This document shows, one piece after another, positions 6,811 through 61,495 of a stretch of DNA of 64,000 nt. Position 1 is the first letter of the stretch. Every line of letters begins with the position of its first letter. Where the stretch lies: the NCBI GenBank assembly GCA_933228675.1, contig OW121743.1, forward strand, positions 89,139,438 through 89,203,437, given 5' to 3'. The translations under genes were made by a program, and so were the position numbers. Below the pieces are notes generated by a model that searched no databases, had not been told where the DNA came from, and worked only from the letters and a program-made list of their open reading frames with translations. The DNA comes from Stomorhina lunata. Lineage: Eukaryota > Arthropoda > Insecta > Diptera > Rhiniidae.

Positions 6811-6824
6811 TCCGTCCGTCTGTA

Positions 6825-6923
<99 letters not shown>

Positions 6924-6924
6924 A

Positions 6925-7013
<89 letters not shown>

Positions 7014-7032
7014 GTCTGTCTGTCTGTCTGTA

Positions 7033-7109
<77 letters not shown>

Positions 7110-7112
7110 GCC

Positions 7113-7145
<33 letters not shown>

Positions 7146-7181
7146 TTCTGTCCGTCTGTCTGTCCATCTGTCTTTCTTTCT
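6811..7181. repeat. (GTCT)n microsatellite, ~370 bp
   Basis: An almost uninterrupted GTCT array with scattered GTCC, GTAT and CTAT variants. It lacks the mini-me-like flanks that border the arrays at 32914 and 38063, so it is either a solitary expansion or its host element has decayed. Frames through it give Asp-Arg-Gln-Thr or Ser-Val-Cys-Leu periodic peptides, which are artefacts. Confidence 0.95.
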
Positions 7182-22018: not shown

Positions 22019-22733
22019 AACAAGTAAGAAAGCGCTATAGTCGGTCAAGCCGACCATACGATACCCTTCACCACTAAGGTCAAAGGTGTTATTTTTCCTG
22101 TAAAAAGACAAATATTTGCTAAATTTTGCCATCTTACAAACATTTTCTCAAAACGTATATATTCAACCTGTTTCCGTCATTTGGACTTATATGAGAGCTA
22201 GGGTCAAATGTGGACCGATTATCTCGAAATTTGGCAAATTGATTACAGTTGTTACAAAAATTATGTATGCAAAAAATAAACTCAAAATTTTCATTATCTT
22301 TAGATTTACGAGCGTTTTAGTGATTTTTTGTCTCATTTAGTGAGTTTTTGAAGAAGAGTTTGTATGGGAGCTATGGTCAAATGCGGACCGATTTCACGAA
22401 ATTTAGTACAGTGATTTTAGTTGACATAAGCAGTATTTGTTTTAAATTTCATGAAAAAATATTGATATTCGTGGCCAATATAGCAATTCCGGGAAGTGGG
22501 ACCTATGGGAGGTACCATAAATAATGGACCAATTTTGACTAATTTCAATAGCCATGGTCCCATTATCAAAAAATGATCTGTGCCAAATTTCATCAAATTA
22601 TCTTTAGAATTGCGACCTGTAGTTTGATTACAAGGTTTACATGGGGGTCCAGCCAGCCAGCCAGCCAGACGGACGGACGGACATCGCTAAATCGACTCAG
22701 AAAGTGATTCTAAGCCTATTGGTATACTAAAAG
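22019..22733 (+). mobile_element. Mini-me/Helentron-like element, copy D (3' truncated)
   Basis: Begins AACAAGTAAGAAAGCGCTATAG and is collinear with copies A and H, including the ccagccagccagccagacgg/ggacggacgg block. It stops right after ggtatactaaaag at about 22733, without the ggtggtgaagggtata terminus, so the last ~100 bp are lost. Confidence 0.78.
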
Positions 22734-32780: not shown

Positions 32781-32917
32781 TATACCCACCATCAAAAAGA
32801 ATGGGGGGTATATTGAGATTGTCATTCCGTTTGTAATTTCCTTAATATTGGCTCAAAAATCAAAAACGATATATATTCTGAATCCTTATGAAATTCTAAG
32901 ACGGTTGAGCGATGTCC

Positions 32918-32972
<55 letters not shown>

Positions 32973-32973
32973 C

Positions 32974-33015
<42 letters not shown>

Positions 33016-34608
33016 CTGTTGGAATCACGATAACGCCTAAACGAAAGGAGCTAGCTCACTGAAACTTGGTAAAACCTATCTTCATCTATGAGAAAATTTT
33101 GGTAATGAAATTGGGCAAAATCCGTTAACATTTGACCATAGCTCCCGTATAACCTCGCCTACGCTAATCGCTTATTTGCTAATAAATAACAAACTATAGT
33201 AGCTATGCTGATAAAATTTGGTATATAGAAGTTTTTCATAAGCCTTATACAGCATGTAAAATTTCATCAAAATCGGTTCACATTTAGTCATAGCTCCCAT
33301 ACAAAAAACTTACGGAAACAGCCAAAATTTCACCTAAAATACACTTAAATGCCAATAAATCCAAAACTATAACAGATATAATCACTAAATTTACTACGAG
33401 GTGGTCTTATGTCGGTGCCAACGAGTGTCGCAATCGGTCACCATTTGACCATAGCTCCCATATAAAAAACTTACGGAAACACAAAAATACAAAAAGAAAA
33501 GGGGGTTTATGTCCGTCTTTCTGTCAGATAAAAGCACGATAGCGCCCTAACGAAAAGAGTTACAACAACAAAATTTTACAAAAGGAAGTCTTATGTGAAT
33601 GCCCACTAGTGTGCAAAATTTTGTCATAATCGGTCACCATTTGACCATAGCTCCCATATAAAAAACTTACGGAAATACAAAAAGAAAACACAGTTTATGT
33701 CCGTCTTTCCGTAAGAGAAAAGCGCGATAGTTCCTTAACTACAAGAGCTAGAGAGACAAAATTTAGCAAAAGTATTTTCGATATGTTATAGAAATTGTGT
33801 GCTGAAAATGGGTAAAATCGGTTCACATTTAGTTAGAGCTCCCATATAACCCTGCCCCGGGAATCACATTTATGCTAATAAATTGAATAAAATTTTAAAA
33901 TCTATGACTACTAAATTTAGAACAGAGAAATTTTATACAACTTTCAGTCAGTATGTCAAATTTTATAGGAATCGGTCCATTTTTGACCATAGCTTTCATA
34001 TAAAAACCGCTCCCGGAAACGACTAACACGCCAGCTAAAAGCTATTAAATTATAAACTATGTCAGCTATGGCCACTAAATTTTGCACAAATAAACTTTAT
34101 ACTAATACCAGCCAGTATATTAAATTTTGTAACATTCGGTCAACATTTGGCTGTAGTTCTTTTATATATAACATCCCCTTTTTATATCTACAATCAAAAA
34201 GATTTGGAGGTACATTCAGTATATAAAGATTGCATCTACGAAATTAGATAGCTATTAATCAATGTTAGGTCCAGCCTTTATACACGGTAGGTGCATTAGG
34301 AACTCCTAACAAAATATATGAACCTGCCGTGTTGCTATCAACATGTTTATGGCACAACGAAACAGCTTATTAATGTGAAACTATATTTGGTTATGGAACA
34401 GCATTTTGTCCAAGGTAGATACTTGGAAAACCACTTAGATACTTTTAAATGTTGAACTATAGTAACTATACCACTGCAACCGAATTAAGTCCAAATATAT
34501 TACCAACAATACCACATTTGGTCAACATTTTGAATTAGCTGCACTCTCGTACAACTTGATGGTGGGTATACAGGATTCGGCACAGCCGAATATAACACTC
34601 TTACTTCT
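32781..34608 (-). mobile_element. Second Helentron-like family (type 2), nested in copy E
   Basis: On the minus strand it begins aagtaagagtgttatattcg followed by the stem gctgtgccg, and it ends gatggtgggtata. It shares with the mini-me family the ACAAGTAAG-like 5' end, the CCCACC/GGTGGG 3' hairpin and the 'gcgatgtccgtctg' core, but the body differs. The body has several ~190-bp blocks of 'gaccatagctcccatataa' (33130-34150). The inserted sequence removes cleanly: 'gcgtttt' plus 'taaagaa' restores the host, so there is no target duplication. Confidence 0.8.
32914..33020. repeat. (GTCY)n microsatellite in type 2 element
   Basis: About 107 bp of GTCT/GTCC repeats directly after gcgatgtccgtc in the nested element. 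The same site in copy F carries 366 bp, so the array length differs over threefold between copies. Confidence 0.95.
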
Positions 34609-34817
34609 TAAAGAAAAGTTTGTATGGGAGCTATGGTCAAATGTGGACCGATTTTAACGAAATTTGATACAGTGATTTACATCGCTAAATCGACTCAGAA
34701 AGTGATTCTAGGCCTATTGGTATACTAAAAGGGTGGTCTCAGACAAATATTTCCATGCGTTACATACATCAGCACAAACTTATAATACCCTTTCCACCTA
34801 TGGTGGTGAAGGGTATA

Positions 34818-35963
34818 ATTAGTCTTTATTTTTCTTTTCGAAAAATTGCAACCGAATTATGCGGATTTTAATTAACCAATCGGAAATTCTAAATCAAATT
34901 ACCCTGGGTATATAAGTATAGTTACATATATTTGACGTACTGCCTCTAAAATATTATAAAATTTTATTTCCTATTCTTTCTTTTTATAATAATATCAACA
35001 ATTATAATTATGCGAATAGAAACAACAAAACCTTAACATCGACATATCGCGGGTCATTGGAACAATTAAAAATTTGACATTAAACAAACAGCGATGAAAC
35101 ATTTATTCAAGCATAACCAAATAAATCTACAATAAATATTCAAATGCAAATACTTTAAGTATAATAATAATGTATTAAAATAATCTATTTATGTTTATTT
35201 AAATACAAGTAAAAAAGTACTAAACAGAAAGAGATAAGAATGAAGTGGAAAAGAATTGCTGTGTAACTAAGACAAAACGACTAAGTTGAGATAAGGAAAT
35301 TTAAAGCTTTATTTTAAAATATTAAAAGTAAAATATGTTTAAAGCAATTTTAAGACATTTTTTTGAAATTTTTAGTATTTTTAAAATGAAATTTTTGTTA
35401 TAATAAACTTAAAATAAGTTCTTTTGCCATAAATTCCTTTAAAATATTTGATAAGCATTTGATTGACATTAGCTCATAAAAGTGATGCCAATGTTTTGTT
35501 TAAAAAAAAAAAAACTTAATCTAATCAGAAATTTTGTATTACTAATGTATTTTTTTAAGATAAAGGCGGAATTATTTATTTGAAATTTTATTTGTATTTT
35601 ATCGAAAGAAATGTTTTGATATTTGAGTGTCGAGACTATTGATTTAATTAAAAATGTTATCGATTTTTAAAAATCAAGACCATCGATCATTTTTTAAAAA
35701 TTAGCTTTTATTACAAGCTTTTCGATGTCGTCTGGAATATGTTTTATTTAATTTCCTTATATAGATATACGACAGTGGATTAATAGGATTGTAAATTTTT
35801 ATTTTTCCCGCCACTTAATAGGGAATTTAAAATTGACGCCTGTCTAAATTGGAACTGGCTGCCTAAATTGACATTTGTTTTTTGTTTGGCAGACTAACTA
35901 GAGCTTTAATAAGAAAAATAATTGATAAGATTTTTCCCACAAGTGTTAAAGGTCTTTTTTTAA
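34818..35963. other. Diffuse AT-rich sequence, no gene seen
   Basis: No gene, RNA gene or repeat is recognised over about 1.1 kb. A 65-codon minus-strand frame at 35863-36060 runs into the Transib-like copy and is not supported. Confidence 0.5.
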
Positions 35964-36473: not shown

Positions 36474-38561
<2,088 letters not shown>

Positions 38562-40346: not shown

Positions 40347-41106
40347 ACAAGTAAGAAAGCGCTATAGCCGGTCAAGCCCGACCATACGATACCCTTCACC
40401 ACCAAGGTCAAAGGTGTTATTTTTCCTGTATAGAGAGAAATATTTGCTAAATTTTGTCATCATACAAACATTTTCTTAAAACTTATATATTTAAGCTGTT
40501 TTCGTCATTTGGACTTATATGAGAGCTAGGGTCAAATGTGGACCGATTATCTCGAAATTTGGCAAATTGATTACAGTTGTTACAAAAATTATGTATGCAA
40601 AAAATAAACTCAAAATTTTCAATATCTTTAGATTTACGAGCGTTTTAGTGATTTGTGAGTTTGTATGGGAGCTATGGGAGCAAATGTGGACCGGTTTCAA
40701 CGAAATTTGGTACAGTGATTTAGGTTTACATAAGCAGTATTTGTTTTAAATTTCATGAAAAAATATTGATATTTGTGGCCAATATGTCAATTCCGGGAAG
40801 TGGGACCTATGGGAGGTACCATAAATAATAGAGCGATTTTGACCAATTTCAATAGCCATGGTCCCATGATCTGTACCAAATTTCATCAAATTATCTTTAG
40901 AATTGCGACCTGTAGTTTGATTACAAGGTTTGCATGGGGGTCCAGCCAGCCAGCCGGACGGACGGACGGACGGACATAGACTCAGAAAGTGATTCTAAGC
41001 CTATTGGTATACTAAAAGGTGGGTCTAAGACAAATATTTCTATGCGTTACCTACATCAGCACAATCTTATAATACCCTTTCCACCTATGGTGGTGAAGGG
41101 TATAAA
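40347..41106 (+). mobile_element. Mini-me/Helentron-like element, copy H, nearly full length
   Basis: Starts AACAAGTAAGAAAGCGCTATAG, ends ggtggtgaagggtata, and carries ccagccagccagccggacgg followed by ggacggacgg at 40944-40976. Collinear with copies A and D, with small deletions (about 40652 and 40867). High similarity to A and D suggests recent activity of this family. Confidence 0.82.
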
Positions 41107-41457
41107 AATTTAATATAGCCAGCGATGTCTGAGGATGGACTTTGATATATCATTCAAAAGTTATTTTGAATATTTGATAATTGACCTTAACAGCCCATAT
41201 TTGATTACAACTTTTTATTAATCATTCTTATATAATTTTGAAAAAAAATATTTATATAAAAAATTTTAATAATTTTAAATTGAGGGTTGAATTTTGACGA
41301 CTGTCTAACATCAACAAACTAATCAGAATTTTAATTGATTATCCATCATAATATTGTACAAACATTCAATTTGTTTTCCATTACATTTGAAACTTCAATT
41401 ACTCGTAAGTACTTCTAACAGTTGGGAGCAAAAAAAACATACATTTTAAAAATGTGG
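41107..41457. other. Diffuse sequence, no gene seen
   Basis: About 350 bp without a recognisable feature between the mini-me-like copy and the SINE. Confidence 0.5.
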
Positions 41458-41575
41458 ATGCTGTGGCTTAGTTGGTTAGCACATCAACTACCAACAAAAT
41501 ATATATCATTGTTTCTCTGTTTGATACCCGGTCACGGCAACATTAATTTTTGTAACTATTAATTTCTTTTAAAAT
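41458..41575 (+). repeat. tRNA-derived SINE
   Basis: The A-box region TGGCTTAGTTGGTTAGCAC is tRNA-like, and TGTTTGATACCC fits a B-box at a distance of about 45 bp. The downstream phrase GTCACGGCAACATTAATTTT recurs in altered form at 61176-61195, preceded there by GGGTTCTAGTCC, so this is a dispersed SINE family and not a tRNA gene. Confidence 0.6.
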
Positions 41576-41584
41576 TATTAATAA

Positions 41585-41695
41585 CCGAAAGAAATTAATT
41601 TTAGTTGAACCAGAATTTATGTTGATGGTCGTGGGTTCGAGTCGGGCTCAGCTTCATGTCATAAATTATTTTTTTTTTAATTTCTGATTTTTAAA
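41585..41695 (+). repeat. SINE-like tail with B-box, copy 1
   Basis: Contains gaaagaaattaattttagtt, then GTGGGTTCGAGTCGGGCTC (B-box-like) and an AT-rich tail with a T run. The same 100-bp segment recurs at 42147-42255, and diverged forms lie at 43475-43520 and 43949-44045. Confidence 0.6.
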
Positions 41696-41732
41696 TTAGA
41701 TGAATAAATTTTAGGAATACTGAAAAAACTAT

Positions 41733-41801
41733 GTGACACTTAGCAGTGTGGAATGCTGCATTTTCTGTCCCGCTACGGACTTCATCAGCACACTGTGTCA
41801 C
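41733..41801 (-). ncRNA. Type I hammerhead ribozyme
   Basis: The minus strand, 5' to 3', shows stem I 5' strand GTGACACAGTGTG (41801-41789), core CTGATGA (41788-41782), stem II with GTCC/GGAC around loop GTAGCG (41781-41766), GAA (41765-41763), short stem III AATG-CAG-CATT (41762-41752), cleavage-site C (41751), and stem I 3' strand CACACTG, bulge CTAAG, TGTCAC (41750-41733). Stem I pairs 7 plus 6 bp around the bulge, as in natural type I motifs where that bulge contacts loop II. All catalytic-core bases are present, including A15.1-U16.1. The one deviation is A-A in place of the usual G-C at position 10.1/11.1. Self-cleavage between 41751 and 41750 is predicted, not shown. Confidence 0.85.
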
Positions 41802-42146
41802 CAACTGTTAGATGCCAGTAGTTAAGATCATCTATTTAACTGAATTCTTAAGCGAAATTGAAAACGAGAATTATATTAACACTCATTTTCATTTCACCTA
41901 TGACCATATGATCGATTCAGTTAGACGAACTTATCCACCATAGTTTTTTCCTTTATGTTTTGTATTCCTATCCTTTATTAATCTACATTTACTTTGTACT
42001 TTAACCAACTGTCAGCTGGTAATGAAGACAAAGATTTTTGTTTTGACAAGTTTTTGTTTTATTCTTTTACGTTAATGCAAATTTTGAATTTAGTATCAAC
42101 TTGAAAGAGTTAATGAAAACATGTAAATCGCGGTGCCCATGCAATT

Positions 42147-42255
42147 TTAATTGAAAGAAATTAATTTTAGTTGAACCATAATTTATGTTGATGGTCGTGG
42201 GTTCGAGTCGGGCTCAGGTTCATGTCATAAATTATTTTTTTTTTTAATTTAATTT
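42147..42255 (+). repeat. SINE-like tail with B-box, copy 2
   Basis: Nearly identical to 41585-41695 (aattgaaagaaattaatttt, GTGGGTTCGAGTCGGGCTCA, long T run). The pair brackets the ribozyme-bearing repeat as direct repeats about 560 bp apart. Confidence 0.65.
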
Positions 42256-43474
42256 TTTTTTTAATAACCTCTATCGGAGGTAAGTAAGCCTACAGCAATA
42301 ACACGCCGTCGATGTAAAAAAAAAAATTGGGTGTAGAACAAAAAGCTTAAGCAATGCGTCTAAATAAGAACAAATGGCACAACTATAACAGAATTTGTAT
42401 GGACAATATTTCCGTTTCCTATAATTCCTGATTAAACTCCTCACTCATTTTCTAGCCTCCACTGTACATCATCTAAACTAATAAAAAATCTATCCATCAA
42501 CAATTCTTTTAGATAACTTTAATGGAAGAAACTATCAACTTTAAGAGTGATTACATACAGATTTCGTATTTCAAAATGTATAAATACAAAAAATAAAAGA
42601 AATCAACATAATTGAGTTTCAACATAAACATTAATTGAGTTTTTAGCCTCCGAAACAAAAAAAAAAAATACATAAAATCATCAGATATCTGATCATTTCA
42701 TTCACTAAATAATAACAACAACCATTAAAAATCATTGGGCCATCTTGTACCTACCACAGGCATGCGAGTACTCGATGATATTTTTAATACTGATTGATCA
42801 TTTCAGCTGATCTTACACACGCATTATCATCATCTCTTTTATGTGAAATTATGATTGACTTGTATTTATTTTTGTCTCTAACGCCATTGATGTCGACCGG
42901 GTCTGAATGAATTGATCTATTAACTCATTGAAAAGGGAAATAATTTAAATAAAAAAATAAGTAGTTTCTTAGGATATTCGATTGCCGAGCTCTTCTGATT
43001 TGATATTTAACAAATGTTGTCATATAAGACAAACAAATATAACAAATTTTTTAGACCAACTATTTTTGGACCAAAAGTTCTCGATGTTCTTTGAAACTTC
43101 TTTACATGATTTTATTGTCTAAATTAATTTTTTTCATTAGTATTTTAGATAAATTTATATATGCGGGTTAAGCCATGGCATTAACCAGCAGCTATTCTGT
43201 TAATGAATAATTGATTTTTAGTTAGGTTTTGGATTTGGTTCTAAAAATTATTGAAGATGTTTTGATTGAAAGTATTTTATTTTCATTAAATATTTAGATT
43301 TCTTTTAGTAAATAGATAGTCTAATAGTTTTCTAGATCATTTCCTAAAATCATATACATAAATATATGAGGACGATCTGGGATGATCTTAAGTCGTGTGG
43401 TAGTCTGGACACTTTAACAATACTACAATATCAAATTTTTAAGTCTAAAATTGTTAAGGTAATATTAATGTAGG
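42256..43474. other. Diffuse AT-rich sequence, no gene seen
   Basis: About 1.2 kb without a recognisable gene or repeat. It separates the two copies of the ribozyme-bearing repeat. Confidence 0.5.
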
Positions 43475-43520
43475 AGGAGGTGGGTTCGAATCCGGCTCAG
43501 GTTCATATCATATATTTGTA
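43475..43520 (+). repeat. SINE-like B-box fragment, copy 3
   Basis: GTGGGTTCGAATCCGGCTCA followed by gttcatatcat matches the 41630 and 42195 segments. GGTTCGAATCC is an exact B-box consensus. It lies at the same position relative to repeat copy 2 as 41630 does relative to copy 1. Confidence 0.55.
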
Positions 43521-43560
43521 TTTTACACATTTTTATGATTTTAAATTATACTAATAATTA

Positions 43561-44045
43561 TTAGGAGTACTGAAAAAAACTGTCCCGCTACGGACTTCAT
43601 CAGCACACTGTGTCACCAACTGTTTGAAGCCAGTAGTTAAGATCATCTATTTAACTCAACTCTTAAGCGAAATAAAAAACGAGAATTATATTAACACTCA
43701 ATTCTTATTCACCTATGACCATATGATCGATTCAGTTAGACGAACTTATATATAGTTTTTTTCCTTTTATGTTTTGTATTCCTATTCTTTATTAATCTAC
43801 ATTTACTTCGTACTTTAACCAACTGTCAGTTGGTAATGAAGACAAAGATTTTTGTTTTTGACAAGTTTTTGTTTATTATTTTACGTTAATGCAAATTTTA
43901 AATTTAGTGTCAACTTGGAAGAGTTATTGCAGGCAAGTAAATCGCGGTCATGCAATTTAATTGAAAGAAATTAATATTATTTGAACCAATCATTTTTTTG
44001 TTGAAGGTTGTGGGTTCGAATCCTAGCTCAGGTTAAATAAACCCA
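43561..44045 (-). mobile_element. Hammerhead-bearing dispersed repeat, copy 2
   Basis: Collinear with 41711-42255. The ribozyme region is damaged: relative to copy 1, 36 bp between 'aaaaaact' and 'gtcccgctacgg' are missing, with a two-base microhomology at the break. The 5,166-bp duplication begins within this copy at 43852. Confidence 0.65.
43581..43616 (-). pseudogene. Broken hammerhead ribozyme
   Basis: The stem I 5' strand, CTGATGA (43603-43597) and stem II (43596-43581) are identical to the intact motif. GAA, stem III, the cleavage-site C and the stem I 3' strand are deleted. It cannot fold or cleave as a hammerhead. Confidence 0.8.
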
Positions 44046-44107
44046 CAACCTCCTATATAAAAATTCTTGGTTCAAATAAAATTAATTTTTTTCAATTAAA
44101 TTGCATG
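43949..44107. repeat. Inverted SINE-tail repeat (foldback)
   Basis: The left arm from catgcaatttaattgaaag to ggttgtgggtt (43949-44018) pairs with the right arm (about 44038-44107), both about 68 bp with few mismatches, around gaatcctagctcagg. The left arm is the SINE-like tail seen at 42147. It looks like two copies joined head to head. The duplicated copy lies at 49115-49273. Confidence 0.75.
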
Positions 44108-45639
44108 GCACCATGTCGTGATTCTTGTATAATATGTGAAATTATATATTTTTTATTATATATTTTTTTATTTTTCTTGTAAAAAAAATCATTATTGGTA
44201 GAAATTTCGCCAAAACCAGTACTCTAATTTTTCCCATAAAAATTAGTTCAAAAACGTTGACCTTACTGGTACATTATTCCGGCTTAAGTCGATCAAGGTT
44301 TAGTATTTGATACCTTTCACTACATAGATAATACCTGGACCAACAAGTTATTTTTTTTTTAATTCTTAGAGATATGTGATAATTTTTTTTTCAAAATTTT
44401 ATATAATTTCCCGCTAATGATCTGATATGTGGTCAGATTGTTACTAAATTATCGGTTATGACTTATCTGTGCAAAATTTAAGCAACAAGATTTATTATCT
44501 TTAGATTTATTATCGATTTTCTGGGTAATTACTTTTGAGAGTGTAAATTATATTTAAGATATGGGCAAATATTTGCCGATATAAAATTTTCCAACATCAT
44601 TTTATACATTTTCATTTTCATAATGATATTTATAGTGAATTCTATAAAAAACACATAAATTTGGGTCTATAAAGGGTCCAAAACTCTATTCCGGTAAGTC
44701 AGCCTAAAAGTCCGATTTTGTTAAATTTCATTAATAGCCTGTTTCACGATTTCGAAAGAAAATCTACTCAAAAGAAAGTGAGTAACTCGAATTCGAATTA
44801 ATTTTGGTTTCACTATCAAGTGACTCATTTTGACATTTGCTTTCGTATTGCTGGTAACTAATTCGAATCTCCTTTTTTGGGCACTGGACAAAGGACACTG
44901 AGACTCTAATCGTCGCGCATACTTTCTTCTAACCATATGGTTTTTATAAGCTGGGACACACACTTTATCAACTCACCACATCCGGCATTGCCGTGTCATC
45001 TTTTTCGCTTACATTGGATACCAAAAGTGCTTCTTCCATACTTTCAGTACGCTTTCTGTATCTGTCACCAGGTTTCCTTGATCGTTCTTACAGGAGAGAT
45101 ACAATTGCCAAAACCATCTGTTTGGTGTTTAACTTTTTGGTAGAACTTACCACTTTTTACACCATAATCGGAGCAGGGTGACTTGTATTTCTCCCATATT
45201 TTTTTCCCCTCTTTCCGGAAAATTTTTTTAAAACGGTACACATTTTTGTAGCTTGTGAATATAATCTTTCTACATATGAAATTTCGTCATAATTTTAACC
45301 ATTTTTTACACTTTAATTCAAGCGGGTAAATTTTATTCGTTTTCAATAAATCGCTGCAAAACGTTTGAATATTACATTATTGACAACATCATTCCATCAG
45401 CTGTTTTTGCGAAGGAAGCATTGAATAAATATACCTAGAAGGCCGACGAAATTTCAAAGTACACCTGGTACATGTCAAAAGTAAGGATCATTAATATAGT
45501 ATCGATAAGCCTAAAAGAACTTTTACAATTCTTAATCAATTAATGAAGCAGTTGCACAAGAAAGTATGATATGATGGAACGAAAATTTGCTTTAAGATTT
45601 TTTCCGTAATATGAAGAAATCCAATTTGAGAAATCCATC
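44108..45639. other. Unique part of the duplication unit, no gene seen
   Basis: No gene is recognised. 44700-45200 is less AT-rich and contains several overlapping 60-80 codon frames on both strands, none with a family signature. It reappears intact at 49274-50805. Confidence 0.5.
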
Positions 45640-46225
45640 TTTAAATTTTTATATCGAAAAGTTTTAAATAGAAAATTTTTATAACGAAAAATTTTCTATA
45701 GAAAAATTTTTCTGTCAAAAAAATTTTATAAAAAAATTCCGTAAATTTTCTGTAGAAAAATTTTATGTCGTAAAATTTTTATATCAAAAAATTTTCTATC
45801 AAAAAGTTAGAAAAATTTTTCTATCAAAAAATTTTCCATAGAAAATTTTTTATATCAAAACATTTTCTATAGAAATTTTAATATCGAAAATTTGTCTATG
45901 AAAAGTTTTTATATCGCAAAATTTTCTATAGAAAAATTTTGATATCGAAAAACTTCCTACAGAAAAATTTTTATATCGAAAAGTTTCTATAGAAATATTT
46001 TCCATATAGAAAAATTTTTATATAGAAAAATTTTCTATAGAAACATTTTCATATCAAACAATTTTCTAACGAAAAAAAAATTTTAATTCCGAAAAATTTT
46101 TTATAGAGAAAATTTTATATGGAAAATTTATCTATTCAAAAATTTTTCTACAGAAAATTTTACGATATAAAATTTCTTGATTCAAAAGTATTATTAGAAA
46201 ACTTTTTATATTAAAAAATTTTCGG
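45640..46225. repeat. TCTATAGA satellite block, ~590 bp
   Basis: Diverged monomers of the kind tctatagaaaaattttgata and ttatatcgaaaa, in the same polarity as the left half of the 23790 array. Flanking it on both sides are near-identical 130-bp segments: 'aagcctaaaa...tttttccgtaat' at about 45510-45613 and 46227-46330, suggesting duplication of the flank. The second copy of the block is at 50806-51391. Confidence 0.85.
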
Positions 46226-46434
46226 TAAGCCTAAAATGCCTTTTACAATTCTTAATGAATTAATGAAGCAGTTGCAGAAGAAAGTATGATATGATGGAAC
46301 GAAAATTTGCTTTAAGATTTTTTCCGTAATTTGAAGACACTTTCTTGAGAAATCCATCTTTTAATTTCATTAAGCAGCCCTACTTGTTCAATAGAAATTA
46401 AGCAAAAACGAAAAAAAAAGAATGTCGAAGAATA

Positions 46435-47366
46435 CCCTACAAGAAATGAATGACCGAAACTAATACGTAGGCATTTTTTTTTTTTACTAATATCTTTAAT
46501 CAATTTTTGTATGGAAGAGTGAAACAACTGCAGATATCTGCAATTATTTCGCTCTTACATATGTAAGAATATATTTTGACAACTCGTAAATTGTATATCA
46601 AAATTTTATTGTTGTCGAAATTATTTTAATAAAAATAAAATAAAATTATTGTTTATATTTAATTATCAAACATTTCAAGGTAAACGGTTTAATAATCGGT
46701 GGAACTTATGGGGCAGTAACTTTACGTTTTATTACAGGCTTTTGGGAAATATTTATCAAAATTCTCTAGTAAGCAAAGTGCTCAACCAGAACAGGAAAAA
46801 TTTACTGAATATCTTGTTAAAAAAGATAAGATTTCTAAAATAGATTATAATTCTAAATTTAATTTTCGTATTCCAGTTTATGCAAAATTATCATGAAGTG
46901 CTGTGTCAAATAAGAAAGTGTCACCTATAACTATTCCTATGAATTCTTTAATATTTATCTAAACGATAAATGTTTTTAAATATAATACAATAAACAAATT
47001 AAAATTTGGACAGGTAAATGTATTTTCCTTTGTTGTTTTCTGGCTAGACAATTGGGGCCGATATATACATCAAGACTGATTAGTCACCTGTGACCGATAT
47101 TTACATCAAGAGTGACTAGTCACCTGTGATCAATATATACATCACCATTGATAAGTAAAATGTATTAGAGTGAGCGGTTCGGATATACATATCTGGAGCC
47201 CGAATAATACATGTGTAAGAAAGAGATGCAAAATCACATGTATACAAAAGTTTCGGTCAGCTTTTTCATATTTGTCTTAATAAAATGATAGCAACTGCTG
47301 ATTGATATAGCAGTCAACACTACCAGTCAGTTGATCGGTCAAATGACTGGTCATGTTCTTGTAGGG
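46435..47366. mobile_element. CCCTACAAGAA TIR element, copy 1
   Basis: Begins CCCTACAAGAAATGAATGAC and ends GTCATGTTCTTGTAGGG, so the tips are inverted repeats of 11 bp with further inverted similarity (TGACCGAAAC; GATCGGTCA). TA flanks both ends (46433-46434, 47367-47368), a possible TA target duplication of Tc1/mariner type. It contains perfect palindromes TGCAGATATCTGCA and CTTACATATGTAAG, and three copies of 'gatatatacatcaagactga' and 'agtcacctgtga' (47045-47150). It has no transposase. Confidence 0.65.
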
Positions 47367-47582
47367 TAATAAACTAAAAAAAATTCAGTTTATAAAAAAT
47401 AAAAAGTGTTTCGACGTCAAAATATTATTCAAATATTAAAAAAATCAACATTTTATTTATATGTGAAATTCAAAATAGTGCATTGTATTCAAAATTTCGC
47501 GGAATTTTTCAAACAAAAACATGAGAGTAAACAGCTTTCCTGTTTGTCAAAAAAGCTTTAATTTCGTGTACGTGTATATCAG

Positions 47583-48710
47583 CCCTACAAGAAATTAATG
47601 ACCGAAACTAACACATACAAAATTTGTTTACTAATACATTTTTACAAAATTGTGAATGTAAGAGTGAAACAACAGCAAAGTTTGCAGCTGTTTCATTCTT
47701 GCATACATTTCAACATGATTTGTCAAAATTATAATTTTCACAATTTTACCAAGCGTCGTTGTAAACTGTCAAAAAATAAAACTATTGCAAAAATATATTA
47801 AATACTTTTTAAAATCAAATCAAAATTTAATGGAAATTGTAAAAAACTTATAAATAAATAAAACTGTCATCATTTTAAAAGCAGGTAAGTTTTTTTATTT
47901 AGTTTTATGCAAATTTTTTTCAGAAAAAATTAGCTAACAAACATTTTTCTAAAGCAAAGTTTTTATAAATAAAATTTTGTATTAACTTAAATTTTTTCTT
48001 TAGAAAATATCCTGTTAAGTCCACAATATGATCAGACCTCACAATTGTCGGTAGTACAACGTTTGAAGCACTTATTCAGGAATAGGTAAAGAATAATTTT
48101 TAAAGGAGTACATTAAATTTATTTTTAACAAAATTTTAAATTTTCCAGAAGGCTCTATGTCAACCAGCTTTTAGTGACGTGTACCCAGTTTAAACAGCCC
48201 TTTCAATCGGATGAAAACGCCGGAAGGAAAGTTGCAGACCTAATATTTTAATTTTTATCTGAATATGAAATTATTAAATAAATTTTTTACAACTTAAACT
48301 CTTTAATAGTATTGTTTTACCACAAAAGATATTTTGGTCACCTGTGATCGATATATACATTAAGACTGACTACTCACCTGTGACCGATATATACATCACC
48401 GTTGATAAGTAAAAACTATTAGAGTGAGCGGTTCGGATATACATATATAGAGCCAGAATAATACATGCATAAGAAAGAGAAGCAAAATCACATGCATACA
48501 AAAGTTTCGGTCAGCTTTTTCATATTTGCATTAATAAAATGATAGAAACTGCTGACTGATATATTAGTCAGCACTAGCAGTCAGTTGATCGGTCAAATGA
48601 CTGGTCATGTTCTTGGAGGGTTAATAAAATGATAGAATCTGCTGATTGATATAGCAGTCAACACTACCAGTCAGTTGATCGGTCAAATGACTGGTCATGT
48701 TCTTGTAGGG
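47583..48710. mobile_element. CCCTACAAGAA TIR element, copy 2
   Basis: Same family as copy 1: begins CCCTACAAGAAATTAATGAC and ends ATGTTCTTGTAGGG. The last ~90 bp are tandemly duplicated, ending once in TTCTTGGAGGG at 48620 and again at 48710. The 216 bp between copies (47367-47582) reappear after copy 2 (48711-48927), so the pair arose by duplication of element plus flank. Confidence 0.65.
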
Positions 48711-48927
48711 TAATAAACTAAAAAAAATTCAGTTTATGAAAAATAAAAAGTGTTTCGACGTCAAAATATTATTCAAATATTAAAAAAATCAACATTTTAT
48801 TTATATGTGAAATTCAAAATAGTGCATTGTATTCAAAATTTCGCGGAATTTTTCAAACAAAAACATGAGAGCAAACAGCTTTCCTGTTTGTCAAAAAAGC
48901 TTTAATTTCGTGTACGTGTATATCAGC

Positions 48928-49010
48928 TTTGTACTGACGTTTGTAATGCATATTAATATAAGCCTAAAATTCGCTTTCAAGTACATCGATTGACTCAGAA
49001 TCACTTTCTG
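48928..49010 (-). repeat. Mini-me-like 3' fragment
   Basis: tgtactgacgtttgtaatgc and tgactcagaatcactttctg match the mini-me-like 3' region. The fragment ends at the duplication junction. Its duplicate is at 54094-54176. Confidence 0.6.
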
Positions 49011-51600
49011 CAAGAACTTGTTTTTGACAAGTTTTTGTTTATTATTTTACGTTAATGCAAATTTTAAATTTAGTGTCAACTTGGAAGAGTTATTGCAGGC
49101 AAGTAAATCGCGGTCATGCAATTTAATTGAAAGAAATTAATATTATTTGAACCAATCATTTTTTTGTTGAAGGTTGTGGGTTCGAATCCTAGCTCAGGTT
49201 AAATAAACCCACAACCTCCTATATAAAAATTCTTGGTTCAAATAAAATTAATTTTTTTCAATTAAATTGCATGGCACCATGTCGTGATTCTTGTATAATA
49301 TGTGAAATTATATATTTTTTATTATATATTTTTTTATTTTTCTTGTAAAAAAAATCATTATTGGTAGAAATTTCGCCAAAACCAGTACTCTAATTTTTCC
49401 CATAAAAATTAGTTCAAAAACGTTGACCTTACTGGTACATTATTCCGGCTTAAGTCGATCAAGGTTTAGTATTTGATACCTTTCACTACATAGATAATAC
49501 CTGGACCAACAAGTTATTTTTTTTTTAATTCTTAGAGATATGTGATAATTTTTTTTTCAAAATTTTATATAATTTCCCGCTAATGATCTGATATGTGGTC
49601 AGATTGTTACTAAATTATCGGTTATGACTTATCTGTGCAAAATTTAAGCAACAAGATTTATTATCTTTAGATTTATTATCGATTTTCTGGGTAATTACTT
49701 TTGAGAGTGTAAATTATATTTAAGATATGGGCAAATATTTGCCGATATAAAATTTTCCAACATCATTTTATACATTTTCATTTTCATAATGATATTTATA
49801 GTGAATTCTATAAAAAACACATAAATTTGGGTCTATAAAGGGTCCAAAACTCTATTCCGGTAAGTCAGCCTAAAAGTCCGATTTTGTTAAATTTCATTAA
49901 TAGCCTGTTTCACGATTTCGAAAGAAAATCTACTCAAAAGAAAGTGAGTAACTCGAATTCGAATTAATTTTGGTTTCACTATCAAGTGACTCATTTTGAC
50001 ATTTGCTTTCGTATTGCTGGTAACTAATTCGAATCTCCTTTTTTGGGCACTGGACAAAGGACACTGAGACTCTAATCGTCGCGCATACTTTCTTCTAACC
50101 ATATGGTTTTTATAAGCTGGGACACACACTTTATCAACTCACCACATCCGGCATTGCCGTGTCATCTTTTTCGCTTACATTGGATACCAAAAGTGCTTCT
50201 TCCATACTTTCAGTACGCTTTCTGTATCTGTCACCAGGTTTCCTTGATCGTTCTTACAGGAGAGATACAATTGCCAAAACCATCTGTTTGGTGTTTAACT
50301 TTTTGGTAGAACTTACCACTTTTTACACCATAATCGGAGCAGGGTGACTTGTATTTCTCCCATATTTTTTTCCCCTCTTTCCGGAAAATTTTTTTAAAAC
50401 GGTACACATTTTTGTAGCTTGTGAATATAATCTTTCTACATATGAAATTTCGTCATAATTTTAACCATTTTTTACACTTTAATTCAAGCGGGTAAATTTT
50501 ATTCGTTTTCAATAAATCGCTGCAAAACGTTTGAATATTACATTATTGACAACATCATTCCATCAGCTGTTTTTGCGAAGGAAGCATTGAATAAATATAC
50601 CTAGAAGGCCGACGAAATTTCAAAGTACACCTGGTACATGTCAAAAGTAAGGATCATTAATATAGTATCGATAAGCCTAAAAGAACTTTTACAATTCTTA
50701 ATCAATTAATGAAGCAGTTGCACAAGAAAGTATGATATGATGGAACGAAAATTTGCTTTAAGATTTTTTCCGTAATATGAAGAAATCCAATTTGAGAAAT
50801 CCATCTTTAAATTTTTATATCGAAAAGTTTTAAATAGAAAATTTTTATAACGAAAAATTTTCTATAGAAAAATTTTTCTGTCAAAAAAATTTTATAAAAA
50901 AATTCCGTAAATTTTCTGTAGAAAAATTTTATGTCGTAAAATTTTTATATCAAAAAATTTTCTATCAAAAAGTTAGAAAAATTTTTCTATCAAAAAATTT
51001 TCCATAGAAAATTTTTTATATCAAAACATTTTCTATAGAAATTTTAATATCGAAAATTTGTCTATGAAAAGTTTTTATATCGCAAAATTTTCTATAGAAA
51101 AATTTTGATATCGAAAAACTTCCTACAGAAAAATTTTTATATCGAAAAGTTTCTATAGAAATATTTTCCATATAGAAAAATTTTTATATAGAAAAATTTT
51201 CTATAGAAACATTTTCATATCAAACAATTTTCTAACGAAAAAAAAATTTTAATTCCGAAAAATTTTTTATAGAGAAAATTTTATATGGAAAATTTATCTA
51301 TTCAAAAATTTTTCTACAGAAAATTTTACGATATAAAATTTCTTGATTCAAAAGTATTATTAGAAAACTTTTTATATTAAAAAATTTTCGGTAAGCCTAA
51401 AATGCCTTTTACAATTCTTAATGAATTAATGAAGCAGTTGCAGAAGAAAGTATGATATGATGGAACGAAAATTTGCTTTAAGATTTTTTCCGTAATTTGA
51501 AGACACTTTCTTGAGAAATCCATCTTTTAATTTCATTAAGCAGCCCTACTTGTTCAATAGAAATTAAGCAAAAACGAAAAAAAAAGAATGTCGAAGAATA

Positions 51601-52532
51601 CCCTACAAGAAATGAATGACCGAAACTAATACGTAGGCATTTTTTTTTTTTACTAATATCTTTAATCAATTTTTGTATGGAAGAGTGAAACAACTGCAGA
51701 TATCTGCAATTATTTCGCTCTTACATATGTAAGAATATATTTTGACAACTCGTAAATTGTATATCAAAATTTTATTGTTGTCGAAATTATTTTAATAAAA
51801 ATAAAATAAAATTATTGTTTATATTTAATTATCAAACATTTCAAGGTAAACGGTTTAATAATCGGTGGAACTTATGGGGCAGTAACTTTACGTTTTATTA
51901 CAGGCTTTTGGGAAATATTTATCAAAATTCTCTAGTAAGCAAAGTGCTCAACCAGAACAGGAAAAATTTACTGAATATCTTGTTAAAAAAGATAAGATTT
52001 CTAAAATAGATTATAATTCTAAATTTAATTTTCGTATTCCAGTTTATGCAAAATTATCATGAAGTGCTGTGTCAAATAAGAAAGTGTCACCTATAACTAT
52101 TCCTATGAATTCTTTAATATTTATCTAAACGATAAATGTTTTTAAATATAATACAATAAACAAATTAAAATTTGGACAGGTAAATGTATTTTCCTTTGTT
52201 GTTTTCTGGCTAGACAATTGGGGCCGATATATACATCAAGACTGATTAGTCACCTGTGACCGATATTTACATCAAGAGTGACTAGTCACCTGTGATCAAT
52301 ATATACATCACCATTGATAAGTAAAATGTATTAGAGTGAGCGGTTCGGATATACATATCTGGAGCCCGAATAATACATGTGTAAGAAAGAGATGCAAAAT
52401 CACATGTATACAAAAGTTTCGGTCAGCTTTTTCATATTTGTCTTAATAAAATGATAGCAACTGCTGATTGATATAGCAGTCAACACTACCAGTCAGTTGA
52501 TCGGTCAAATGACTGGTCATGTTCTTGTAGGG
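51601..52532. mobile_element. CCCTACAAGAA TIR element, copy 3 (duplicate)
   Basis: The duplicate of copy 1 within the right 5,166-bp unit, with the same tips and TA flanks. Confidence 0.65.
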
Positions 52533-52748
52533 TAATAAACTAAAAAAAATTCAGTTTATAAAAAATAAAAAGTGTTTCGACGTCAAAATATTATTCAAAT
52601 ATTAAAAAAATCAACATTTTATTTATATGTGAAATTCAAAATAGTGCATTGTATTCAAAATTTCGCGGAATTTTTCAAACAAAAACATGAGAGTAAACAG
52701 CTTTCCTGTTTGTCAAAAAAGCTTTAATTTCGTGTACGTGTATATCAG

Positions 52749-53876
52749 CCCTACAAGAAATTAATGACCGAAACTAACACATACAAAATTTGTTTACTAA
52801 TACATTTTTACAAAATTGTGAATGTAAGAGTGAAACAACAGCAAAGTTTGCAGCTGTTTCATTCTTGCATACATTTCAACATGATTTGTCAAAATTATAA
52901 TTTTCACAATTTTACCAAGCGTCGTTGTAAACTGTCAAAAAATAAAACTATTGCAAAAATATATTAAATACTTTTTAAAATCAAATCAAAATTTAATGGA
53001 AATTGTAAAAAACTTATAAATAAATAAAACTGTCATCATTTTAAAAGCAGGTAAGTTTTTTTATTTAGTTTTATGCAAATTTTTTTCAGAAAAAATTAGC
53101 TAACAAACATTTTTCTAAAGCAAAGTTTTTATAAATAAAATTTTGTATTAACTTAAATTTTTTCTTTAGAAAATATCCTGTTAAGTCCACAATATGATCA
53201 GACCTCACAATTGTCGGTAGTACAACGTTTGAAGCAGTTATTCAGGAATAGGTAAAGAATAATTTTTAAAGGAGTACATTAAATTTATTTTTAACAAAAT
53301 TTTAAATTTTCCAGAAGGCTCTATGTCAACCAGCTTTTAGTGACGTGTACCCAGTTTAAACAGCCCTTTCAATCGGATGAAAACGCCGGAAGGAAAGTTG
53401 CAGACCTAATATTTTAATTTTTATCTGAATATGAAATTATTAAATAAATTTTTTACAACTTAAACTCTTTAATAGTATTGTTTTACCACAAAAGATATTT
53501 TGGTCACCTGTGATCGATATATACATTAAGACTGACTACTCACCTGTGACCGATATATACATCACCGTTGATAAGTAAAAACTATTAGAGTGAGCGGTTC
53601 GGATATACATATATAGAGCCAGAATAATACATGCATAAGAAAGAGAAGCAAAATCACATGCATACAAAAGTTTCGGTCAGCTTTTTCATATTTGCATTAA
53701 TAAAATGATAGAAACTGCTGACTGATATATTAGTCAGCACTAGCAGTCAGTTGATCGGTCAAATGACTGGTCATGTTCTTGGAGGGTTAATAAAATGATA
53801 GAATCTGCTGATTGATATAGCAGTCAACACTACCAGTCAGTTGATCGGTCAAATGACTGGTCATGTTCTTGTAGGG
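52749..53876. mobile_element. CCCTACAAGAA TIR element, copy 4 (duplicate)
   Basis: The duplicate of copy 2 within the right unit, including the doubled 3' end. The C/G difference between units (53237) lies inside it. Confidence 0.65.
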
Positions 53877-54183
53877 TAATAAACTAAAAAAAATTCAGTT
53901 TATGAAAAATAAAAAGTGTTTCGACGTCAAAATATTATTCAAATATTAAAAAAATCAACATTTTATTTATATGTGAAATTCAAAATAGTGCATTGTATTC
54001 AAAATTTCGCGGAATTTTTCAAACAAAAACATGAGAGCAAACAGCTTTCCTGTTTGTCAAAAAAGCTTTAATTTCGTGTACGTGTATATCAGCTTTGTAC
54101 TGACGTTTGTAATGCATATTAATATAAGCCTAAAATTCGCTTTCAAGTACATCGATTGACTCAGAATCACTTTCTGCAAGAAC

Positions 54184-55649
54184 TTCTTGAATTTCTGGAT
54201 AGTTTTGGTTAAAATTTAATAGCGTATCCTAGGAGGATATATTCACATATGTCATGATTTTAAAATATACATTTTTTATAATTTTAAGTTGGTCGTTGGT
54301 TGTTAACCATTATATAAAATTGTCTAAATTCAACATTAAATAATTTTAATCTATGTTTTTGTTTGATACTGAATTTATGACTTGTTTCTTTTTATAATAA
54401 TAAGCCTGTTATCAAAACACTAAAATTAACCAAATTTCCAATAAAATTTCAAAAACCCGCATTGATGTCATCATTAATGCGGCATGCAACAATCTAATTA
54501 CGTCAATGTCTAAAAATGTATATATTTTACATACGATTACATTAAGTGCCCACAACCAGACGTAAATTGTAAAGTTACAAGAATTTGTTATTAGTTTTTG
54601 GAAAACCGCAATTTCCCTCGTAAATATTAACATCAACTGAATGCATAAAGAATTACTTTATGGCTGCTCGATGTATTTTGTATGTAGAAACTACCCTCAA
54701 GATATCTGAAGTATATAATTTACTTAAATTAAAATTACTTAGATTTTTGCTTTTGTGGTTTTATTAATAAATTCTAGTTAAATTAAGACGATAAATAGAA
54801 AATGGATTTATTAAGATGTATACTCGTATGTTACACTGGCCGAATATGATTTTTTTTTGGTAAACAATTTTTCAAATATATTTGTATATGTATATTGAGA
54901 GCACTATGCCCTTTATACCAAACGATGTAGGATCATACGTCAATATACTCGCTTGGCTGACAAACATATAAAACTCTTTACTAATGATCTAAGAAGAAAC
55001 AAAACAAAATTTTGTGAATTATTCTGAAAGTTCATCAAAGCTGGACATCTCAAATATGAAAAGCATTCTTCAAAAATCGTATAACGTGAAATGTATAATT
55101 TATCTCTTATAGTCTATGAGTTATTCGTATTTTGAAATAAAAATATACATTTCGAATCATGACCCATTTTTTTACAAAACTTTTAAAAAATTTGAACATT
55201 TTTTTCATCGTTAATTAAAGGACAAAACTCCTACATATTTTTGGAAAAGAATCATTAATTTTGTTTAACAGTGTAATTAGATAGTTGTAGTAATTCTAAT
55301 TAAGAGTTAATATTTAAAATTACACTTAAATTTTTATACATCATCAGTTTCATCTTGAACATGATTATCATCATTTTAAAGTTCATTGATATGATATTTT
55401 CACAAACAACAAATAACAAGTAAAAACTGAAATAAATCTGTTAAAATAAATAAATAAATATTTTCTTAATTATTGTGCAGTTATTTTGTGGTTTTAAATA
55501 ATAATTATAATTCTTTACAATTTCACAATAAACGTAGTCTTAAAATAAATATTTTAATGTTTACATTTTAACACTGTTCGACAGAATATCGCAAAAGAGT
55601 GATAGTCTTGCTATTTTAGAGAAAGATGTCCACCCATCGCGAAGCATTC
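54184..55649. other. Diffuse AT-rich sequence, no gene seen
   Basis: About 1.5 kb with no recognisable gene, RNA or repeat. Confidence 0.5.
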
Positions 55650-59760: not shown

Positions 59761-61495
59761 GAAACTTAATGGGGCCTGCCACCGATAGTTGAGTATTGGA
59801 TTATTATTTTAAAATGTCGCTTAGTGTAATTGTTTATGACTAGATTCTGCTTTTTGTAACATCGTTTTTGGATTTTGGACCTTGTAGGGTTTTTGTTTGA
59901 CTTCTTAATCAGTTTTTTGCTGACACTGCATTTTTGTAATGTGAGAAGAAATGTTCTTTTATGAATCATTATTTTTCTTACCTAAATATATTTACACTAT
60001 TAATCTGGTACATCATAGAATCTTAGTCAATTTAAAGTGATTGTATTTTTTTTATGAAATGAGGAATTTTCAAAATAAAAAAATCATAAATCCAAAAATT
60101 ATTTTTTATAGTTTAAATTTTAGTTATTTTATGTTTATTTATACACCTCTTCATTTTTCTAGGCGTTTTGCTAAGTAGTAAAAGCCTCAAATTTGAAAAT
60201 GTTTTTAAATTTGCGTGATAGTTGTCACTGTTCAAGGTCGTCTTTGAATACACGTGCAGGACATAAAAATTAAAATTAACCCATTTAGCGGCATAGAAAT
60301 GATATTTAAGACAAAAAAAAGATTTTGCAAAACTGACTGAAATAAACATTTATGACTTATTTACTTGAATAGTGGTATAACTCAAATGTTTTCAAGTTTT
60401 TTCAAAATTTGTAAAAAAGTTCAAAAAATCCGTAAACTTACCAAAATAGTATAATATAACATTTCCGGTTCCTGATTATTTTTATTAAGAAGCGGATGTT
60501 ATACTAGCGAAAAATATTTGAACATGATCTTTTTTAAAATAAAGACATTTTTCGATTTAGGCCTTTATTAAAGTTAATGGCCAATATATATACCTAAATA
60601 TAAACAATCATAAAAATCGCAAAAAAAAAGAAAAAAAAATCACCAGAAAAAAAATATTTAGAACAGAAAATAAACACGCAACCCGGAAAAATACATAAAT
60701 GCAAAAACATGAAATTTATATACAAAATATTGAAATGCCTTGAAACCTGTAAATGCAAACATTAAACATTAGAAACAGGGAAATAGGAAAATATCTGCCT
60801 CTCGCTTTTAATTTTCTTTTTATTGTTGATATTTAGTGAATGTATGTATGTATTGTTCTTATGTGTGTGTGAATATGTTGTAGGAAGAAAATTGTCTTAT
60901 TTGTATAACCCACATTTAAATGTGCCAATAAAAAGTTAGATTTGTATTATCAGACAAATCGACTTGATTGGATCTTTACAACAGATTTCGTATTTTGAAT
61001 ATTCACTGGAGCTCTATTAGCATATATAAGTTTTATATCAATTCTTTCTAAAGCGGAACAGGAATAGCTTAGTTTTTCTTCTTCTTTTGTTATCCCAGTA
61101 GAACATAGGACCACAATCATCCTCTTATATCAACTACTAAGCATAACATATTAAATTCTGCCTGGGTTCTAGTCCTAGTCACGGCAACATCACTTTCTGT
61201 AATTAAACTGTGCCAGTTGAAAAAACCGACAAAATGGAGACCTTGTCGGCAAAGATAATATAAGTACTCTGAACGTAATGGAGCCAACCATTTATGTCAG
61301 TTCGAGTTTTCGAGATAAAGCGTTATAAAAAATAAATATTCGCGTAACCCGAAAGTTGTTTACTTTTTTGAACGTAGTAAAAACCGGCAACAAAATTATC
61401 TTTCAGGAACACTAATTATTTTTTTTTAATCCGAACAGTCGTTTTGGAAATAAATTTCCCACCAAAATTTTTTGGTTTTATCAAAAAACTATTTA
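59761..61495. other. Diffuse sequence with small repeat fragments
   Basis: No gene seen. 61074-61113 matches the left end of the mosaic element (ttcttttgttatcccagta, gaacatagga), and 61166-61205 matches the SINE tail (gttctagtcctagtcacggc). The two lie about 50 bp apart. Confidence 0.5.

What the first reader, a model, noticed from the sequence alone, without database searches (positions are those of the whole stretch)
41733..41801. Intact-looking type I hammerhead ribozyme in a fly repeat
Seen: on the minus strand CTGATGA, a GTCC/GGAC stem II, GAA, a 4-bp stem III, a C at the cleavage position and a stem I of 7 plus 6 bp with a 5-base bulge, all in the right order and spacing. Known: hammerheads occur in Penelope-like elements, retrozymes and the SINE-like schistosome repeat, and very short stem III is typical of retroelement hammerheads. 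Inference: transcripts of this repeat self-cleave before 41750. The A-A at 10.1/11.1 is unusual and may slow it.
Basis: partly seen in the sequence, partly recalled or inferred. Interest (0 to 1): 0.88.

Follow-up and report, generated by a model that had tools for sequence, protein, structure and literature searches.

The report
Fly retrozyme with Penelope-type insertion ends
The spotted motif is an intact-looking self-cutting RNA (hammerhead ribozyme) inside a 566-base repeat present in hundreds of copies in this insect-like genome, and the way sampled copies are inserted matches that of Penelope retrotransposons in the same genome, which points to who moves such ribozyme repeats in animals.

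Summary
A matching descriptor occurs once in the window and 0 times as strongly in 38.4 Mb of random sequence. It is not a lone motif. The genome that holds the window has 1177 matches to the core and 874 exact 69-nt copies; reversed-pattern controls give 0. The HHR is among the most conserved windows of a 566-bp non-coding unit. Units occur singly or as arrays, mostly head-to-head, with 10-13 bp AT-rich target duplications. In 16 of 16 elements with both ends classified (of 32 clusters), one end is unit position ~566 (T1) and the other ~531 (T2), 35 nt apart. Two Penelope-like (PLE) families in the same genome show the same rule: 18 of 20 head-to-head pairs, spacing 34-38 nt, 0 same-same. Best reading: an animal type I retrozyme copied, probably from circular RNA, by PLE machinery. 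Papers seen name PLEs only as likely helpers. Self-cleavage, circles and the helper protein are untested; Rfam does not recognise the motif.

The parts
41733..41801 (-). Type I hammerhead ribozyme, 69 nt; predicted cut between C41751 and C41750
   Evidence: 874 exact genome copies
41782..41788 (-). Core CUGAUGA (C3-A9)
41763..41765 (-). Core GAA (G12-A14)
41766..41781 (-). Stem II region: A-A closing mismatch (41781, 41766), GTCC/GGAC, loop GUAGCG
   Evidence: A-A in all 100 printed of 1177 matches
41740..41744 (-). Stem I bulge GCUAA, 4-nt complementary to loop II UAGC (possible tertiary contact)
41587..42152 (-). One 566-bp retrozyme unit (reference unit used here)
41587..42260 (-). Whole insertion in the window: one full unit plus part of a second (unit 461-566); T1 end at 41587, truncated at the other end
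41578..41586 (.). Left target-site duplication TTAATAACC
42261..42269 (.). Right target-site duplication TTAATAACC
41587..41621 (-). 35-nt 'tail' between the two insertion-end sites T2 (unit 531) and T1 (unit 566)
41607..41638 (-). Putative stem-loop GAACC...GGTTC spanning T2, like GACC...GGTC in PLEs of this genome
   Evidence: suggestive only
42129..42142 (-). GC-rich box GCATGGGCACCGCG (unit 11-24), 10 nt past T1, resembling the PLE box CGGAGRGCMCGCCG
   Evidence: best-scoring place of the unit on both strands, but a fraction 0.224 of 500 shuffles scores as high
43464..44034 (-). Second, ~81% identical copy that lacks 35 nt (41730-41764 of the first copy): part of GAA, stem III, the cleavage site and the 3' side of stem I

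Best explanation
The motif is the ribozyme of an animal-type retrozyme: a 566-bp non-coding repeat mobilised in trans by Penelope-like element (PLE) machinery. Proposed cycle: (1) arrays are transcribed through the strand that carries the hammerhead (inferred); (2) the hammerhead cuts each unit (inferred from intact core and strong conservation); (3) unit-length RNA is closed into a circle (inferred from published animal retrozymes); (4) a PLE protein cuts both strands of an AT-rich target and starts reverse transcription at T1 from one DNA end and at T2, 35 nt upstream, from the other (end signature shown, enzyme inferred); (5) each cDNA covers from a fraction of the unit to several rounds of it and the two meet head-to-head, leaving a 10-13 bp target duplication (structure shown). 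The window copy is a short, one-sided product with one full ribozyme.
For: Ribozyme. Tandem unit: spacings 561-593 bp among same-strand neighbours in the first 100 printed exact copies. Head-to-head: in that list 17 of 18 multi-copy clusters have both strands and 17 of 18 strand changes are '-+'. Ends: 16 of 16 fully classified elements T1+T2, 0 same-same, out of 32 clusters; direct repeats of 10-13 bp in those 16. Same genome, PLEs: 150 scored Penelope-type endonuclease matches, 11 of them in open frames of 830-864 codons; PLE-B copies end at 139-143 (11 of 49 matches) and 174-176 (19), PLE-K at 145-150 (11 of 47) and 186-188 (26); 18 of 20 head-to-head pairs T1+T2; direct repeats flush with the ends in 9 of 13 fetched pairs (my reading). 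One template per insertion: mean 0.26 substitutions between units of one array (143 pairs) against 5.4 between arrays (406 array pairs), 0.36 between opposite arms (50 pairs), window copies left out. The folded circle is unusually stable, z -5.4, 40 shuffles.
Against: No RNA or biochemical data. No Rfam hammerhead match (uninformative). The A-A at the base of stem II may slow or block cleavage; the hammerhead fold is 3 kcal/mol above the best fold. No blastn similarity beyond short, mostly A/T-rich matches (best E 4e-4, 29 nt) between the unit and the PLE regions L048-L063, so no specific helper is named. In the anole PLE, ribozyme mutants still inserted and no difference in start site between strands was seen in vitro (PMC11167929, parts 1-2 of 4), so ribozyme and circle may not be needed. 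For 16 of 19 multi-unit arrays the nearest other array differs by at most 1 substitution, so array homogeneity does not prove a circle. A third PLE family had too few ends to call.
Confidence: 0.8

Rival explanations
1. The same PLE-mobilised repeat, but copied from linear multi-unit transcripts; the ribozyme is slow, protein-assisted or a passenger and no circle is needed.
For: Anole PLE: ribozyme mutants insert equally and ribozyme cleavage needs protein (PMC11167929, parts 1-2 of 4). Arrays run uninterrupted through the cleavage site. A-A mismatch and better competing fold.
Against: The HHR is almost invariant (0.00015 non-consensus per site) while the stretch after it inside the same search query varies at 0.019 (part of that stretch is an A-run), which a passenger would not be expected to show. 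Both arms of an array carry the same variants, though a uniform linear transcript would give this too.
Confidence: 0.3
2. A LINE-type non-LTR element mobilises the repeat, with twin priming giving the inverted arms.
For: Twin priming yields inverted copies (recalled); target duplications and AT-rich targets fit LINEs too.
Against: Twin priming does not predict two fixed start sites 35 nt apart used one per end; PLEs of this genome show just that. I saw no poly(A) tail at the printed ends. I did not search for LINEs in this genome.
Confidence: 0.1
3. A fold-back type DNA transposon whose inverted arms are tandem units.
For: Long inverted arms with flanking direct repeats.
Against: The two termini differ (T1 versus T2) in 16 of 16 classified elements, arm lengths and inner junctions vary, and one-sided truncated copies exist.
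Confidence: 0.03
4. A tRNA-derived SINE with an accidental hammerhead on its antisense strand.
For: A B-box-like GGTTCGAGTC lies on the + strand at 41634-41647, followed by a T-run (name recalled).
Against: ARAGORN finds no tRNA in the window; the B-box-like stretch overlaps the 5' arm of the stem that spans T2; SINEs are not known to me to form head-to-head tandem arrays; the hammerhead is among the most conserved windows of the unit.
Confidence: 0.04

Closest known systems
Metazoan non-LTR retrozymes (Cervera and de la Pena 2020, PMC7229834; abstract, sections 13 and 17 and passages seen)
   Same: Type I hammerhead, small low-GC non-coding tandem repeat, many copies, highly self-paired unit RNA, target duplications longer than 4 bp when present, co-existence with PLEs.
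   Different: Unit 566 bp, longer than the 150-450 bp stated there; arrays mostly head-to-head; two fixed end sites; A-A at the base of stem II (one axolotl family has U-U). The paper calls PLEs a strong candidate helper but shows no insertion signature in the parts I saw.
Penelope-like elements: Adineta vaga Penelope (PMC3846280, passages) and anole Poseidon PAc (PMC11167929, parts 1-2 of 4)
   Same: Head-to-head pseudo-LTRs, partial tandems, optional 30-40 bp tail equal to the stretch between two RT start sites, AT-rich cutting, 8-10 bp target duplications, hammerheads.
   Different: No protein-coding sequence; the hammerhead has a real stem III hairpin and a bulged long stem I, unlike the minimal PLE type; no alignable sequence with the PLE regions of this genome tested.
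Type III hammerheads of flies including Musca domestica (PMC7936874, passages)
   Same: Hammerheads encoded in dipteran genomes.
   Different: Type III with long helices I and II, described as similar to those of HDV-like agents; this one is type I in an often tandem retroelement.

Membership tests
Hammerhead ribozyme, type I | Core CUGANGA ... GAA with three stems, open in stem I, H17 before stem I | tested here: met
Hammerhead ribozyme, type I | G-C pair at 10.1/11.1 (recalled consensus) | tested here: not met
   A-A, in all 100 printed of 1177 matches; one published axolotl retrozyme family has U-U at the base of stem II (PMC7229834 passage)
Hammerhead ribozyme, type I | Rfam covariance match | tested here: not met
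   uninformative; PLE loci with hammerhead-like cores also unmatched up to E 1
Hammerhead ribozyme, type I | Loop I-loop II contact | tested here: inconclusive
   4-bp complementarity UAGC/GCUA, no covariation available
Hammerhead ribozyme, type I | Self-cleavage | not testable with these tools
   needs bench work
Metazoan non-LTR retrozyme | Non-coding tandem repeat with a type I HHR in the unit | tested here: met
Metazoan non-LTR retrozyme | Unit length 150-450 bp | tested here: not met
   561-593 bp
Metazoan non-LTR retrozyme | Unit-length circular RNA | not testable with these tools
   no RNA data; predicted fold z -5.4
Penelope-like element (autonomous) | ORF with RT and GIY-YIG endonuclease | tested here: not met
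   in the window no ORF of 100 codons or more overlaps the element; the fetched arrays are joined units
PLE-mobilised element | Head-to-head copies with a 30-40 bp tail at one end only | tested here: met
   16 of 16 classified, of 32 clusters; PLE comparison 18 of 20
PLE-mobilised element | AT-rich target with short duplication | tested here: met
   PLE comparison
PLE-mobilised element | PLE protein starts on this RNA | not testable with these tools
   -

The most novel reading that the evidence does not exclude
A ribozyme-made RNA circle is reverse-transcribed from both cut DNA ends at once by a PLE enzyme pair, one subunit starting at T1 and the other at T2, each able to go round the circle; the head-to-head arrays are the frozen record of this double rolling-circle insertion, and 'one start site per DNA end' is a general rule of PLE integration shared by autonomous PLEs and retrozymes.
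Probability: 0.4. Interest if true: 0.87.

Novelty: new variant of a known kind. Interest (0 to 1): 0.73.

Why it matters
Which enzyme moves animal retrozymes is an open question: a 2020 review says the repeats show no conserved motif that helps deduce the helper (PMC7761336, passages). Here retrozyme copies and autonomous PLEs of one genome share the same unusual end rule, which makes PLE mobilisation directly testable and gives a computational test for any other retrozyme genome. It also offers a reading of how PLEs get their head-to-head form.

Tried and rejected
Rfam at gathering and relaxed thresholds: no hammerhead, nor in the whole genome (nothing rang in its controls, so uninformative). 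I fetched the one genome match with the other stem II junction to see whether the A-A explains the Rfam failure; that copy lacks the rest of the hammerhead, so the test told nothing. Viral contigs hold no exact 24-mer. No tRNA in the window by ARAGORN. blastn of the unit against PLE regions found only short matches. The GC-rich box has its best place in the unit at T1+10, but a fraction 0.224 of 500 shuffles scores as high. Helenus-type tRNA-LTR elements (PMC10886601, passages) were considered because of the B-box-like stretch and dropped: the ends found are not LTRs. Literature: searches were searched; their listings (titles and starts of abstracts) showed no report of a PLE end signature in a retrozyme and no type I fly retrozyme. 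Of the 25 papers with 'retrozyme' since 2021 I looked into two by passages (PMC7936874, PMC10886601). Subscription papers are mostly not held, among them the 2014 PLE-hammerhead paper.

Full report
Observation. A descriptor with the core, at least 5/4/3 pairs in stems I/II/III and an allowed mismatch at the base of stem II hits once in the window, at this site; in 38.4 Mb of first-order Markov sequence (one strand) there were 2 loose hits and none with at least 6/4/4 pairs. The loop of stem II (GUAGCG) and the stem I bulge (GCUAA) can pair over four bases, UAGC with GCUA, a plausible loop-loop contact that I cannot test by covariation because copies are nearly identical.

Results against an active ribozyme. 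Rfam 15 gives no hammerhead match in the window at gathering scores, nor in 4 kb or 96 bases around the site up to E 10, nor in the genome (whose controls were silent too). Rfam likewise gave no hammerhead up to E 1 in five PLE loci, three of which carry hammerhead-like cores by my reading, so its silence is weak evidence; I had no positive control. The hammerhead fold is -18.8 kcal/mol against -21.8 for the best fold; 10 of 200 shuffles fold at least as well as the 69 nt. A-A stands where G-C is usual (recalled) at 10.1/11.1.

It is a family. The window's genome (unnamed, 728 Mb, 104 contigs) has 1177 matches to a core pattern that leaves 10.1 and 11.1 free, and 0 to the reversed pattern; all 100 printed matches have A-A. 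A pattern without the A before GAA has 1 match. Exact 69-nt copies number 874; an exact 24-mer elsewhere in the unit numbers 977. Of 106 hammerhead matches in 30 fetched loci (L009-L038, the window copy included), 97 are full-length and 96 of these identical; 9 are partial. In seven overlapping loci of a subfamily 93-96% like the unit, 30 full-length matches are identical and 5 are partial. In 99 aligned pieces the hammerhead has 0.00015 non-consensus letters per site, against 0.0007 in the 29 bases just before it, 0.019 in the stretch after it (421-513) and 0.013 in unit 1-322; the lowest 69-nt windows start at 359, and the hammerhead window itself ranks 11th. The loci were mostly chosen by similarity to a query covering unit 323-513, which favours conservation there, but 421-513 lies in the same query and varies about 100-fold more; that stretch contains an A-run, which inflates it.

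Unit and arrays. The unit is 566 bp in the window. In the first 100 exact hammerheads printed, along contig C1, there are 56 clusters: 38 with one and 18 with two or more. Seventeen of the 18 contain both strands; 17 of 18 strand changes are minus-then-plus, that is head-to-head; same-strand neighbours are 561-593 bp apart.

Ends. In one search, 32 element clusters were classified in 30 loci. Both ends could be classified in 16: all 16 have T1 (unit ~566) at one end and T2 (unit ~531, in three cases up to about 15 nt further in) at the other; none has two alike. Twelve had one classified end, three ran off the fetched stretch, and one had none (the degenerate copy in this window). Of the twelve, L022 and L023 also show a T2-like end by eye, not counted. 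Direct repeats next to the ends of the 16 are 10-13 bp, flush or within a few bases of the ends; the method takes the longest shared string in AT-rich flanks, so single lengths may be off. Other rows give shorter or longer strings (5-24) where an end is truncated or complex. The window copy is one-sided: T1 at 41587, truncated at unit 461, with a 9-bp duplication TTAATAACC. The second copy at 43464-44034 lacks 35 nt of the hammerhead's 3' half.

PLEs of the same genome. The Pfam GIY-YIG model rings twice: an SLX1-like gene (L047) and a Penelope-type endonuclease fragment (L048, both my reading). The L048 fragment finds 150 scored matches of 206 candidates, 11 of them within open frames of 830-864 codons and many broken or short. 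Searches with the start regions of two families list where copies end. Family B, 49 matches: 11 end at 139-143, 19 at 174-176, 7 run through, 12 elsewhere (seven of these at 172 or 179-181). Family K, 47 matches: 11 at 145-150, 26 at 186-188, 2 run through, 8 elsewhere. A third family (G) was searched too; of 19 matches four end at 204, one each at 156 and 167, and ten at 122, too few to call. Among 20 head-to-head pairs drawn by script from all listed B and K matches, with bins set after seeing the ends, 18 are T1+T2, none same-same, 2 unclassified. I fetched 13 of these pairs: in 9 the longest direct repeat is flush with the inserts (9-14 bp in eight, 23 in one); in four (L065, L072, L075, L076) it lies in AT satellite off the ends (my reading). 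Three PLE regions (L058-L060) hold minimal hammerheads without a stem III loop, and L048/L050-L052 a weaker candidate (my reading).

Shared RNA features, suggestive only. A stem GACC...GGTC is in the best fold of six of seven PLE start regions, and GAACC...GGTTC in that of the unit; in B, K and the unit it spans T2, and its 3' arm starts 9-12 nt past T2. The anole PLE starts reverse transcription in an AC-rich stem-loop at two adjacent sites separated by the 'tail' (PMC11167929, parts 1-2 of 4). The GC-rich PLE box has its best unit match 10 nt past T1, though a fraction 0.224 of shuffled units scores as well.

Template. With the two separate window copies left out (one search had joined them by mistake, 43 substitutions), units within one array differ by 0.26 substitutions on average (143 pairs) against 5.4 between arrays (406 array pairs; 3.8 without the subfamily); opposite arms differ by 0.36 (50 pairs). 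One template RNA per insertion explains this. A circle explains multi-unit copies of it; a linear transcript of a uniform array would too, and for 16 of 19 multi-unit arrays the nearest other array is at most 1 substitution away. The folded circular unit is stable beyond shuffles, z -5.4 from 40 shuffles.

Reading. Works like: a retrozyme whose RNA is used by PLE machinery. Member of: type I hammerhead by architecture, with one tested feature (10.1/11.1) and the Rfam match not met; non-LTR retrozyme in the tested features but unit length; not a PLE itself. Shown: sequence, copy number, conservation, arrays, end rule, PLE comparison. Inferred: cleavage, circles, the helper. The published record suspects PLEs (PMC7229834 section 17; PMC7761336 passages) and describes inverted pseudo-LTRs with an optional tail in PLEs (PMC3846280 passages); the listings showed no report of these end signatures in a retrozyme. 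The host as a fly is inference (AT-rich repeats, and an SLX1-like gene beside a MED31-like one in L047, recalled as neighbours in Drosophila; not tested).

Noticed in passing
window 43856-49019 and 49022-54185: Head-to-tail duplication, period 5166 bp, 1 mismatch in 5164 aligned bases: very recent, or an assembly artefact.
   Followed up: partly
L058 327-, L059 937-, L060 1013- (coordinates, L059 and L060 on the minus strand): PLE start regions carry minimal hammerheads (stem III without a loop) with one extra base between A9 and stem II on the 5' side only.
   Followed up: partly
window 41483-41558 and 61129-61205: tRNA-like SINE stretches (A-box/B-box-like by eye, names recalled), 71% alike over 77 columns; the retrozyme lies just beside the first.
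   Followed up: no
window 40500-41117: Another repeat family with copies at 5113-5774, 22172-22733, 15676-16112 and 34689-34818.
   Followed up: no
window 6814-7181, 32913-33019, 38063-38429: (GTCT)n / (TGTC)n / (ACAG)n microsatellites, two of about 92 copies.
   Followed up: no
flanks of many of the loci L009-L037: Many insertions sit in AT-rich repeats of the AAAATTTTTCTATAGAAAAATTTTTGATA type that also fill this window; not counted.
   Followed up: no
G000 places: Eleven PLE endonuclease matches in open frames of 830-864 codons, from several families, in one insect-like genome: good material for PLE biochemistry.
   Followed up: no
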